From contig CALXBE010000001.1 in NCBI GenBank assembly GCA_944386495.1, positions 117,583 to 181,582 on the forward strand: 64,000 nt of DNA, read 5' to 3'. A program made the translations under genes and the position numbers. Source of the DNA: an uncultured Gemmiger sp. (GTDB taxonomy: Bacteria; Bacillota; Clostridia; Oscillospirales; Ruminococcaceae). Below are positions 2,554 through 64,000 of the stretch, piece after piece (within the stretch, counting starts at the first letter, position 1; each line of letters starts with the position of its first letter). The notes beneath the pieces were generated by a model. That model ran no database searches and had not been told where the DNA came from. It worked only from the letters and a program-made list of their open reading frames with translations.

Positions 2554-3234
2554 TTAAATTTTTAGGGGGCAAAAGCCCAATCCATCCGCAGAAGTAAGCC
2601 GATATTGGATTCCGTCCACCTCTCCCTGGACCCCGTAATGGATGCTTTTCCCGTGGAGATGTCCGTAATAGCACCGCCGGACCCCATACTCTTTCATCAC
2701 TTCCAGTATCTCCGGGGTGGAGGAAGTGCCGAAGATGGGCGGGTAATGGAGAAAACAGACCTTCTCCTCCTCCCCCTGTGCCGCGGAAAGGCTGAGCCGG
2801 AGCCGCCCGGTCTCCCGGTCGATGACCTTCCGGTCATGGACTTCCCCCTGGTCGAACATCCAGCCTCGGGTGCCGCAGAGCCAGACCCCCTCCACCAGCC
2901 TTGCATTATTAAAGAGAAACCCCAGGCTGGAAAAACCCTGGTCGGCCAGGTAAGTCTCCATCTTTTTCATAGTGGTCCACCAGTAATCGTGATTTCCCTT
3001 CATGAGAAGCTTTTTCCCGGGCAGGCTGTCCAGAAAAGCAAAATCCGCCCTGGTATCCTCCAGTTTCATGGCCCAGCTTACATCCCCGTTGATGACCACA
3101 GTATCCTCCGGGCCCACCAGTTTCCGCCAGTTGGATTCCAGCTTTTCCAGGTACCCTTCCCAACCGGAAAACACATCCATGGGCTTGGATGCTCCCAGGG
3201 AAAGGTGGGTATCTCCCATTACAAAAATTGCCAT
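2554..3234 (-). CDS. Metallophosphoesterase (calcineurin-like)
   Basis: This 226-residue protein has the five calcineurin-type metal-binding motifs: GDTH (Asp8, His10), NGDVSW (Asp51), GNHDYW (Asn81, His82), LHYPP (His163) and GHLHG (His192, His194). Length and motif order fit a compact two-metal phosphoesterase. There is no signal peptide, so it should be cytoplasmic. The substrate cannot be told from sequence; such proteins act on nucleotides, phosphoproteins or small phosphoesters. It sits alone between tig and a divergent small + strand gene, with its own ribosome site (GGAGGAA). Confidence 0.85.
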   Translation of the reverse strand: MAIFVMGDTHLSLGASKPMDVFSGWEGYLEKLESNWRKLVGPEDTVVINGDVSWAMKLEDTRADFAFLDSLPGKKLLMKGNHDYWWTTMKKMETYLADQGFSSLGFLFNNARLVEGVWLCGTRGWMFDQGEVHDRKVIDRETGRLRLSLSAAQGEEEKVCFLHYPPIFGTSSTPEILEVMKEYGVRRCYYGHLHGKSIHYGVQGEVDGIQYRLTSADGLGFCPLKI

Positions 3235-3298
3235 AAATTCCTCCTGTTAAACTGGCTCCCTATGGCCCATACTATGGCTGTAAGGAGGTGTACAAACG

Positions 3299-3457
3299 AT
3301 GTACCAGAATGAAAAGACTCTCAGCGGCATTTGCTGCGATGTTACCAACTGTGTTCACAACGACGGAAAATGCTGCTGCACTGCCAGCGAGATCCATGTG
3401 AAGAACCGCTCTTCTCATCCCGAGGAGACCTGCTGCGGAACCTTCAGCGAAGTCTAA
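3299..3457 (+). CDS. DUF1540 family cysteine-rich small protein
   Basis: This is a 52-residue ORF that begins MYQNEKTLSGICCD and ends CCGTFSEV. It has eight cysteines (residues 12, 13, 18, 25, 26, 27, 45 and 46), as in the DUF1540 family of small Firmicute proteins, which probably bind metal. A strong ribosome site, AAGGAGGTG, lies ten bases before the ATG, and a strong hairpin terminator follows the stop. It is one of few + strand genes in this half of the window. Function is unknown; some spore-formers carry several copies. Confidence 0.82.
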   Translation: MYQNEKTLSGICCDVTNCVHNDGKCCCTASEIHVKNRSSHPEETCCGTFSEV

Positions 3458-61920: not shown

Positions 61921-63462
61921 ATGCGCGGTATTGATACCACCGTCCATCGCATCCGCCGCAGTGTATTTGCGGAAGTAGCCCGGATGAGCTACGAGTACAA
62001 CACCATCGAAGAGTACGAGCAGCAGGTTCGCACCCTGCCCTTCAAGATCATTCCCGGAGAGGCCAACACCCACCGGGAGAGCATCTTCCTGGAGCGGGCC
62101 ATTGTAAGTGAACGAATCCGTCTGGCCATGGGTCTGCCCCTGCGTCCCATCGACCATCAGATGAGCACCACCGAAGGCCTGGAGAACTGTGTCAGCGCCC
62201 ATAAGTACTATGAGCCCCCGCTGATCAATGTGATCAAGTTCGCCTGCCACCGCTGCCCTGAGAAAATTGTAAAGGTCACCGAGATGTGCCAGGGCTGTCT
62301 GGCTCATCCCTGCCAGGAAATCTGCCCCAAGAACGCCATCAGCTTCCGAAACGGCAACCTGAGCTACATTGACCAGGATCTCTGCATCAAGTGCGGCCGC
62401 TGTGTGGACGCCTGTCCCTACCACGCCATTATCAAGACCGAGCGTCCCTGCGCCGCCAGCTGCGGCATGAACGCTATCCACAGTGACAGCCTGGGCCGGG
62501 CCGAAATCGACTACGACAAGTGTGTCAGTTGCGGCATGTGCCTGGTAAACTGCCCCTTCGGAGCCATCTCCGACAAGAGCCAGATTTTCCAGCTGATTCA
62601 GGCCTTCAAGCGGGGTGACCGGATCTACGCCGCCGTTGCTCCCGCCTTCATCAATCAGTTCCCCGGCCTGACCCCCGGCAAGTTCCGGGCCGCCATGCTC
62701 CAGCTGGGCTTTGAGGATGTGGTCGAGGTAGCCATCGGCGCCGACCTCTGCACCGTAGAGGAAGCCAAGGACTTCCTGAAGGAAGTTCCCGACGAAATTC
62801 CCTTCATGGCCACCAGCTGTTGCCCTGCCTGGAGCGTTATGGCCAAGAAGCTCTTCCCCGAACGGGCCAACTGCGTAAGCATGGCCATGACTCCCATGGT
62901 TCTCACCGCCCGGATGATCAAGAAAGCCGACCCCGATGTTCGGGTATGCTTTGTAGGCCCCTGCGCCGCCAAGAAACTGGAAGCCCAGCGCCGGACCATC
63001 CGCAGCGATGTGAGCTTCGTTCTCACCTTTGAAGAACTGATGGGTATGTTTGAAGCCAAGCAGGTTGACTTTGACCAGCTGGAGGAAGATCCCGAGGATA
63101 AGCTGGAGCATGCCAGTGCCGACGGCCGCGGCTTTGCTGCCAGCGGTGGTGTAGCCCAGGCAGTGGTCAACGCCATCAAGGAGCTGGCTCCTGACCGCGA
63201 GGTAAAGGTTGCCAGTGCTCAGGGTCTGGCCGACTGCAAGAAGCTGCTCATGCTGGCCAAGGCAGGCAAGTATAACGGCTATCTGCTGGAAGGCATGGCC
63301 TGCCCCGGCGGCTGCATTGCCGGCGCTGGTACTCTGGCCGATCCTGCCAAGACTCTGGCTCAGCTGAACAAGTATAAAGCCACCGCTCCTTTCAAGGGTG
63401 CCGTGGAGAGTCCCTTTGAGATGAACCTGGCCTTCCTGGAGGAAGAGCGTCACCACAACTGA
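61921..63462 (+). CDS. [FeFe] hydrogenase, group-B-like, with ferredoxin-type domain
   Basis: The 513-residue cytoplasmic protein has a helical N-terminus and a cysteine-rich iron-sulfur region. That region includes CHRCP, CQGCLAHPCQEICP, CIKCGRCVDACP and CVSCGMCLVNCP. The H-cluster domain follows, with L1 motif TSCCPAW, L2 GPCAAKK and L3 EGMACPGGC. The L2 and L3 forms fit group B hydrogenases of gut Clostridia better than the classical group A. It should make or use H2 with ferredoxin. No maturation genes (hydEFG) are in the window. The ribosome site is GAGAGGAG. Confidence 0.9.
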   Translation: MRGIDTTVHRIRRSVFAEVARMSYEYNTIEEYEQQVRTLPFKIIPGEANTHRESIFLERAIVSERIRLAMGLPLRPIDHQMSTTEGLENCVSAHKYYEPPLINVIKFACHRCPEKIVKVTEMCQGCLAHPCQEICPKNAISFRNGNLSYIDQDLCIKCGRCVDACPYHAIIKTERPCAASCGMNAIHSDSLGRAEIDYDKCVSCGMCLVNCPFGAISDKSQIFQLIQAFKRGDRIYAAVAPAFINQFPGLTPGKFRAAMLQLGFEDVVEVAIGADLCTVEEAKDFLKEVPDEIPFMATSCCPAWSVMAKKLFPERANCVSMAMTPMVLTARMIKKADPDVRVCFVGPCAAKKLEAQRRTIRSDVSFVLTFEELMGMFEAKQVDFDQLEEDPEDKLEHASADGRGFAASGGVAQAVVNAIKELAPDREVKVASAQGLADCKKLLMLAKAGKYNGYLLEGMACPGGCIAGAGTLADPAKTLAQLNKYKATAPFKGAVESPFEMNLAFLEEERHHN

Positions 63463-63479
63463 TCCGCCAAAATGGATAC

Positions 63480-63514
63480 CGACCCGGGGCTAGTCGCCTC
63501 GGGTCGTTTTTTTT
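63480..63514 (+). terminator. Terminator after the hydrogenase gene
   Basis: The stem CGACCCG-GGG / CC-CGGGTCG is followed by TTTTTTTT. Confidence 0.93.
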
Positions 63515-63534
63515 AGAAATATTTTATAAAAGTA

Positions 63535-63563
63535 TTGACTTTTATCTTTTTCCAGACTATAAT
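63535..63563 (+). promoter_or_regulatory. Promoter of tRNA-Ser
   Basis: -35 TTGACT (63535-63540), 17-nt spacer, perfect -10 TATAAT (63558-63563), about 32 nt before the tRNA. Confidence 0.9.
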
Positions 63564-63594
63564 AAATATCGTTGTCGGTGCGCCCCAACAATGT

Positions 63595-63686
63595 GGACAG
63601 ATGGCTGAGCTGGTCTAAGGCGCACGACTGGAAATCGTGTAACCCCCATAAAGGGTTCGAGGGTTCGAATCCCTCTCTGTCCGCCA
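63595..63686 (+). tRNA. tRNA-Ser (anticodon GGA) with encoded CCA
   Basis: A 92-nt class II tRNA. The acceptor GGACAGA pairs with TCTGTCC, the D arm is present, the anticodon stem is CACGA/TCGTG with loop CTGGAAA (anticodon GGA, reading UCC/UCU), then a long variable arm, and a T arm GAGGGTTCGAATCCCTC. CCA is encoded at 63684-63686. Confidence 0.97.
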
Positions 63687-63723
63687 AAAAAAATCCCACA
63701 CCAAACGGTGTGGGATTTTTTTT
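63687..63723. terminator. Terminator of tRNA-Ser
   Basis: ATCCCACACC-AAAC-GGTGTGGGAT has eight A before it and eight T after, so it works in both directions. The same hairpin recurs at 63853-63883. Confidence 0.93.
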
Positions 63724-63852
63724 GGCGTTCGACAGAGAGAGGATTCGAACAGCACGGTCGGCACAGCCGAAAAGAACAGTCCTGCGGACTGTTCTTTAGT
63801 GCGCGGGTGCCGGGACTGGGCGCACACTACCGGGGACCTTGTTTCCCCTGTC
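63693..63852. repeat. 160-bp structured repeat, copy 1, carrying an inverted tRNA-Ser 3' fragment
   Basis: This unit contains a terminator hairpin, then on the minus strand a copy of the tRNA-Ser T-arm/acceptor end (63724-63750). Three hairpins follow: CGGC-ACA-GCCG (63759-63769), a 12-bp stem AAAGAACAGTCC-TGC-GGACTGTTCTTT (63771-63797), and GTGCGC/GCGCAC (63799-63825). It has no coding potential I trust. It is repeated directly next to this copy. Confidence 0.9.
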
Positions 63853-64000
63853 ATCCCACACCAAACGGTGTGGGATTTTTTTTGGCGTTCGACAGAGAGA
63901 GGATTCGAACAGCACGATCGGCGCAGCCGAAAAGAACAGTCCGGTGGACTGTTCTTTAGTGCGCGGGTGCCGGGACTGGGCGCACACTACCGGGGACTTT
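63853..64000. repeat. 160-bp structured repeat, copy 2 (cut by window edge)
   Basis: It matches copy 1 over 148 bp with only five substitutions; a period of exactly 160 bp separates them. The inverted tRNA fragment is at 63884-63910. Further copies may lie beyond the edge. Confidence 0.9.

What the first reader, a model, noticed from the sequence alone, without database searches (positions are those of the whole stretch)
63693..64000. Tandem 160-bp repeats with an inverted tRNA-Ser 3' end, right after tRNA-Ser
Two adjacent units at exact 160-bp spacing follow the tRNA-Ser terminator. Each contains, in reverse orientation, the T-arm and acceptor 3' strand of the same kind of tRNA (63724-63750 and 63884-63910), plus a terminator and three more hairpins. 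The layout recalls the tRNA-tail-containing repeats of the E. coli tyrT operon, but here the tail is inverted. It may be a tRNA-derived repeat family, an integration scar or a source of small RNA. No protein is credible in it. Of the signals in this window, this best fits an undescribed element.
Basis: partly seen in the sequence, partly recalled or inferred. Interest (0 to 1): 0.82.

Follow-up and report, generated by a model that had tools for sequence, protein, structure and literature searches.

The report
tRNA-tail repeats with matching arms
The repeats after this serine tRNA gene belong to a group of short hairpin repeats that sit behind many different tRNA genes, mostly in gut Clostridia, and carry copies of the end of the tRNA they follow, much like a long-known but poorly understood repeat in E. 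coli.

Summary
Two 160-bp-spaced units (97% identical) follow tRNA-Ser(GGA), each with an inverted copy of that tRNA's T-arm and acceptor strand. The window ends at a contig end; the array very probably continues on another contig (three units plus 62 nt), and a shorter array is contiguous in a congener, so it is no assembly artefact. The unit carries a hairpin, AACAGTCCNNNGGACTGTT. Typical layout: tRNA tail, terminator, inverted tail, hairpin core, direct tail copy with CCA. Arms tend to match the adjacent tRNA, while nearly identical cores occur behind different tRNAs. This suggests a core that spreads and takes its arms from the target. E. coli RtT repeats share the layout with another core; at tyrT they too have an inverted arm, so inversion does not set this array apart. 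The window matches no Rfam family at cut-off besides its tRNA, and its own direct copy is eroded. Verdict: a new, Clostridia-centred variant of the RtT kind. Mobility, transcription and function are inferred.

The parts
63535..63563 (+). sigma-70-like promoter of tRNA-Ser (TTGACT, 17, TATAAT)
   Evidence: consensus scan, 11 of 12 matches; not evidence of function
63595..63686 (+). tRNA-Ser(gga)
   Evidence: ARAGORN, Rfam RF00005 56.6 bits
63693..63852 (+). repeat unit 1 (160 bp)
   Evidence: the repeat finder; copies in G000, G001, G002
63693..63723 (+). terminator-like hairpin with T tract, unit 1
   Evidence: inverted repeat I3, fold; the identical stem of unit 2 is scored as a terminator
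63723..63750 (-). inverted copy of the tRNA-Ser T-arm and acceptor 3' strand, unit 1
   Evidence: alignment score 18, 0 of 5000 shuffled tails
63752..63802 (+). GCAC (63752-63755) / GTGC (63799-63802) closing stem around two hairpins
   Evidence: by eye; Tyr has the same pairing, Lys GGCC/GGCC; the fold pairs GTGCGC differently, with 63820-63825
63775..63793 (+). conserved hairpin AACAGTCC-TGC-GGACTGTT, unit 1
   Evidence: exact pattern in 23 of 148 family genomes; flanking pairs covary
63840..63852 (+). possible remnant of the direct tail copy
   Evidence: by eye only; not found by alignment
63853..64000 (+). repeat unit 2, cut by the contig end
   Evidence: continues on contig C9
63883..63910 (-). 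inverted tRNA tail copy, unit 2
63935..63953 (+). conserved hairpin, unit 2

Best explanation
An RtT-like tRNA-tail repeat: a short element behind a tRNA gene, made of a hairpin core and two arms that match that tRNA, one inverted before the core and one direct after it, ending in CCA and often a terminator. Shown: the layout, arms that tend to match the adjacent tRNA, nearly identical cores behind different tRNAs, copy ends clustered in the T-loop, a bias of structure to the tRNA strand. Inferred: (1) the core spreads as a non-autonomous element and its arms are rewritten from the target tRNA, perhaps by snap-back or template-switching synthesis at the T-loop and terminator palindrome, enzyme unknown; (2) arrays grow and shrink by unequal recombination; (3) read-through transcription yields an RNA whose inverted arm pairs with the direct copy, giving an acceptor/T-stem-like helix with CCA that tRNA processing could release as a small RNA. 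In this window the direct copy is eroded, so a read-through transcript would pair the inverted arm with the tRNA's own 3' end.
For: Own-tRNA match beats at least 95% of other-amino-acid tails for the direct copy in 89 of 104 and for the inverted arm in 72 of 106 records, both in 59 of 104. 74-bp cores identical in 69-73 of 74 columns behind Leu, Met, Gln and Arg tRNAs of four genomes. Core flanks more alike within genomes than by chance (mean 0.65 against 0.52, 0 of 2000 shuffles). Direct copies start 0 to +5 nt into the T-loop in 67 of 87 and reach the CCA end in 66 of 87. Hairpin flank pairs: 33 G-T against 1 A-C; cores fold better on the tRNA strand, 57 against 27. Same layout in E. coli RtT repeats.
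Against: The inverted arm fails the 95% test in 34 of 106 and the direct copy in 15 of 104. 19 of 33 same-genome pairs are at 0.61 or lower, and 9 of the 12 highest come from one genome, so the within-genome signal leans on few genomes. No clean empty site, no mobility protein, no expression data. The window's units lack a detectable direct copy. The Ser arrays of three congeners are vertically shared.
Confidence: 0.55

Rival explanations
1. Functional tRNA-linked RNA kept by selection: the RNA, or the alternative pairing of the inverted arm with the tRNA end, regulates tRNA output or disposes of read-through precursors.
For: Structure bias to the tRNA strand; the inverted arm can capture the tRNA tail in a long hairpin; RtT RNAs give Northern signals in a Pasteurellaceae species (PMC4986893, passages).
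Against: Cores do not follow the tRNA: the same anticodon in different genomes is no more alike (0.53) than different amino acids (0.52). Decay of the Tyr copy in G000. Absent from most family genomes by exact hairpin (125 of 148 without).
Confidence: 0.22
2. No mobility: local tandem duplication of tRNA tail plus terminator, palindrome-directed template switching and gene conversion made each array in place; the hairpin is an older dispersed repeat that became included.
For: The tail-terminator-inverted tail of the window is a near-perfect palindrome. G170 Leu(tag) has a hairpin-less array.
Against: Nearly identical cores behind different tRNAs in different genomes, between arms of different sequence.
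Confidence: 0.15
3. Remnant or satellite of integrative elements: direct tail copies are attachment-site duplications left by a tRNA-specific integrase.
For: Direct copies run from T-loop to CCA, as in classical tRNA integration (recalled). Five viral contigs carry tRNA 3' halves with the element.
Against: Only about 120-200 nt between tail copies where a second copy is found; no credible ORF in the window's units; an inverted arm; one core at many tRNAs.
Confidence: 0.05
4. REP/REPIN-like element moved by a Y1 (RAYT) transposase.
For: Conserved extragenic palindrome, also dispersed, 35 copies in G089.
Against: Y1_Tnp is not found in G000, G007 and G089 (at E 0.001) and is not associated: 11 of 23 hairpin carriers against 52 of 125 others, counted by hand, taking the two draws of 148 as the same.
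Confidence: 0.03

Closest known systems
RtT RNA (Rfam RF00391), tRNA-tail repeats of the E. coli tyrT operon (rttR)
   Same: Behind tRNA genes, tandem units (178 bp in E. coli, 160 bp here), inverted arm before the core (Tyr, lysQ), direct tail copy with CCA after it (relatives of the window), one core behind several tRNAs (Tyr, Pro, Lys, Arg).
   Different: Other core: no AACAGTCC hairpin in tyrT/tyrV; no RtT match in the window or in 8 Clostridial genomes. Terminator before the inverted arm at most Clostridial loci listed, in E. coli seen at lysQ. In lysT/W/Y/Z and arg the inverted arm is not above other-tRNA controls.
REP elements, BIMEs and REPINs
   Same: Extragenic palindromes in many places; rtT-like sequences have been reported within BIMEs (PMC2965389, passage).
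   Different: tRNA-matching arms; no association with Y1 transposase.
tRNA-integrated genomic islands and phages (recalled)
   Same: Direct duplication from T-loop to CCA that leaves the tRNA intact.
   Different: Very short, no gene, inverted arm, many tRNA targets for one core.

Membership tests
RtT RNA (RF00391) | match to the RtT covariance model | tested here: not met
   window 62000-64000 none up to E 1; 0 of 8 Clostridial genomes, E. coli rings among 14 controls
RtT RNA (RF00391) | lies behind a tRNA gene in tandem copies | tested here: met
RtT RNA (RF00391) | inverted arm matching the tRNA before the core | tested here: met
RtT RNA (RF00391) | direct tRNA tail copy with CCA after the core | tested here: not met
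   not detectable in the window's units; present in many relatives behind other tRNAs
RtT RNA (RF00391) | transcribed and released as an RNA | not testable with these tools
   no expression data
REP/REPIN with RAYT | Y1 transposase in carrier genomes | tested here: not met
   no match in G000, G007, G089; 11 of 23 carriers against 52 of 125 others
REP/REPIN with RAYT | short conserved palindrome, extragenic, many copies | tested here: met
   extragenic position judged by eye, not by annotation
tRNA-integrated mobile element | direct tail duplication flanking the element | tested here: inconclusive
   in relatives, not detectable in the window
tRNA-integrated mobile element | integrase or other gene between the tail copies | tested here: not met
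   no credible ORF in the window's units

The most novel reading that the evidence does not exclude
RtT repeats and the Clostridial hairpin elements are two branches of one unrecognised class of tiny mobile elements that insert at tRNA 3' ends and copy the target tRNA's T-arm and acceptor strand into both of their own ends, perhaps through an RNA or single-stranded DNA intermediate and an unidentified enzyme.
Probability: 0.38. Interest if true: 0.82.

Novelty: new variant of a known kind. Interest (0 to 1): 0.6.

Why it matters
The E. coli tyrT repeats have a counterpart in another phylum with a different core, and in both cases one core is found behind several tRNAs with a tail copy that fits the neighbour. 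That turns 'where do they come from' into a testable question about an element whose ends are rewritten from its target. Such arrays can also break draft assemblies at tRNA genes, as in this window.

Tried and rejected
My first pattern had a four-base loop (AACAGTCCNNNNGGACTGTT), an error; it gave 2 of 197 genomes, one site each, none in our own genome, and serves only as an accidental control. Weak Rfam matches in the window other than tRNA are below their gathering scores and rejected. Rfam at gathering score on 17 of the 120 pattern loci gave tRNAs and one glycine riboswitch only.

Y1 transposase as partner: argued against. Plasmid and phage records: no blastn match to unit 1. Viral contigs: 5 stretches; ARAGORN finds no tRNA at the element; by eye the sequences begin with tRNA 3' halves, perhaps prophage borders. 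G064, a genus mate of carrier G170, was fetched for an empty site: 5 of its tRNA regions (one Ser, four Leu) show no hairpin, but they are not shown to be orthologous, so this gave nothing.

Pattern hits outside Clostridia by record title: 7 of 120. Three Burkholderiales (L184, L209, L285) have one convincing arm each; Planctomycetota L281 has a long exact direct tail but no inverted arm; L188, L199 and L204 are weak or negative.

Dropped before counting: 14 of 120 loci without an ARAGORN tRNA and two second-upstream tRNA records (L207, L253), leaving 106 records; two of these with too little sequence for the direct test. Cores: 84 with direct score 12 or more; 87 with a recognisable T-loop motif and direct score 9 or more; 83 of these with an inverted score of 7 or more; seven loci refetched under another number.

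Literature searches listed nothing on the Clostridial element that I recognised. Papers seen by passages only: PMC8040213, PMC4986893, PMC2965389, PMC7657543, PMC2658671, PMC7661048. REPIN papers PMC3116915 and PMC2817692: search listing with start of abstract only. Bosl and Kersten 1991 is not held; known by citation in PMC4986893 and by recall.

Full report
Observation. tRNA-Ser(gga) at 63595-63686 is followed by two units at 160-bp spacing, 97% identical over 148 nt. Each has a terminator-like hairpin, an inverted copy of the tRNA's T-arm and acceptor strand (63723-63750, 63883-63910; 0 of 5000 shuffled tails score as high) and more hairpins. No protein is credible. The window ends at a contig end. 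Its last 35 nt equal the start of contig C9, including a base that differs between units 1 and 2; C9 carries one more unit, a 62-nt partial copy, and then sequence that also follows a shorter, contiguous array in congener G002 (946 of 995 columns identical; 687 of 1033 in G001). So the array is real, and probably three units plus a partial one. All three genomes of the genus that were searched have it.

Other tRNAs of the genus. In 88 distinct contexts downstream of tRNA genes of G000, G002 and, in part, G001 the same layout was seen by score and by eye at Leu(cag), Leu(gag), Lys(ctt) and Tyr, and in hairpin-less form at Trp and a Met(cat) gene. At Tyr of G002 it is complete: tail, terminator, inverted tail, hairpins, direct tail with CCA, twice, then a decayed copy; G000 has only one decayed copy there. 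The shared piece is a hairpin, AACAGTCCNNNGGACTGTT.

Distribution. The exact hairpin is in 23 of 148 family genomes and 21 of 123 genera, the backwards control in none. Some genomes hold it dispersed, with no tRNA called in the 3-kb stretches read (35 copies in G089). In 106 of 120 a tRNA lies upstream within the set range, of 36 anticodon types and 19 amino acids. Nearness to a T-loop motif was part of the pattern; the spread over isotypes and the arms were not. In 249 genomes across the phylum the pattern was found only in our own; of the 248 others, one is of our order and six more of our class. The family is concentrated, not general.

Arms and cores. After the hairpin, the adjacent tRNA's tail fits better than at least 95% of tails of other amino acids in 89 of 104 records and better than all in 85 of 104; the inverted arm before the hairpin does so in 72 of 106 and 42 of 106; both pass 95% in 59 of 104. 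The direct copy starts 0 to +5 nt from the first T of the T-loop TTC in 67 of 87 and reaches the last base of CCA in 66 of 87; the inverted arm ends at -4 to 0 in 78 of 83. Between the arms, 74-bp cores are identical in 72-73 columns behind Leu(gag), Met(cat) and Gln(ctg), and in 69-70 behind Arg(ccg), in four genomes. In genome G225 like cores lie behind Leu, Lys, Val and Gln genes, at 0.74 to 0.93 identity of the hairpin flanks across amino acids. Over 123 elements of 101 genomes, hairpin flanks are more alike within a genome at different amino acids (mean 0.65, 33 pairs) than under label shuffling (0.52; 0 of 2000), while the same anticodon in different genomes (0.53, 292 pairs) is no more alike than different amino acids (0.52, 6637 pairs). 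Against this: 19 of the 33 pairs are at 0.61 or lower, 9 of the 12 highest are from G225, and shuffling ignores relatedness of genomes.

Which strand. Next to the hairpin the first two pairs are Watson-Crick in 104 and 99 of 105 contexts, with several pair types; over three pairs there are 33 G-T and 1 A-C on the tRNA strand; inverted arm against direct copy gives 11 G-T and 3 A-C. In 41 dispersed contexts 41, 40 and 38 of the first three pairs are Watson-Crick. Cores fold better on the tRNA strand in 57 against 27 (p 0.0014); tRNAs 88 against 13; terminator segments 67 against 15; a downstream control 54 against 42 (p 0.26). This favours RNA, or single-stranded DNA of that strand; common descent inflates the G-T count.

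Known relative. The E. coli tyrT/tyrV repeats carry the classical 19-nt direct tail and also a 22-nt inverted arm. Rfam RtT matches four copies there, one behind proK, five in the lysT cluster and, below cut-off, one by an arg gene; the other seven of eleven E. coli regions read gave none. The direct copy fits the local tRNA at Tyr, Pro, Lys and Arg. The inverted arm is above other-tRNA controls at Tyr and, narrowly, lysQ (13 against 12), about equal at proK (13 against 14), and not above them at lysT/W/Y/Z or argQ/Z. lysQ shows terminator, inverted arm, core, tail, terminator. [quoted passage not shown] A table lists rtT RNA with a 175-bp VNTR in Salmonella (PMC2658671, passage). The Clostridial element has another core, and neither the window nor eight Clostridial genomes match the RtT model. 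I call it a new variant of the RtT kind, not a member of the Rfam family.

Mechanism. Most likely, in my view, a non-autonomous element whose core spreads and whose arms are taken from the target tRNA, with arrays changing by unequal recombination and, where transcribed, an rtT-like RNA. The arm rewriting by templated synthesis is inference; no enzyme is known, and a Y1 transposase is argued against. In this window read-through would pair the inverted arm with the tRNA's own end and could inactivate such precursors; this too is inference.

Limits. The pattern required an exact hairpin and a set distance, so hairpin-less (G170 Leu(tag)) and diverged forms are missed. No expression data, no exact empty site, one GTDB scan stopped at its limit. 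Closing-stem statements for Ser, Tyr, Lys and Leu are by eye.

Noticed in passing
L144-L178, L182, L183 (G007, G089, G118, G119, G151, G021, G166): Dispersed copies of the hairpin with no tRNA called nearby, up to 35 per genome (G089), inside larger structured repeats; several begin after terminator-like hairpins, by eye.
   Followed up: partly
L034 (G002:C15, 1100-1849): An orphan element with terminator, inverted-arm-like piece and hairpin but no tRNA gene called in the stretch.
   Followed up: no
L328 (G170 Leu(tag), 1876-1960 and downstream): A tandem array with terminator, inverted tail and direct tail but no hairpin between them.
   Followed up: no
L365-L369 (viral contigs): Element copies next to tRNA 3' halves on viral contigs, perhaps prophage borders at tRNA genes that carry the element.
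   Followed up: partly
L281 (Planctomycetota, tRNA-His at 985-1061): Same hairpin behind tRNA-His with a long exact direct tail copy (score 32) but no inverted arm.
   Followed up: no
L377 (E. coli lysQ, 3078-3309): The same terminator sequence stands before the inverted arm and after the direct tail copy, as in many Clostridial loci.
   Followed up: no
L085 and L104 (Leu(gag) in G000 and G002): A block of about 50 nt holding the hairpin is present in G000 and missing in G002, as if the hairpin were a module of its own; the G000 hairpin has compensated outer pairs (CCCAGTCC/GGACTGGG).
   Followed up: no
window:62800-63462: The gene upstream of tRNA-Ser, conserved in G001 and G002, looks like an iron hydrogenase by recalled motifs; no search was made.
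   Followed up: no
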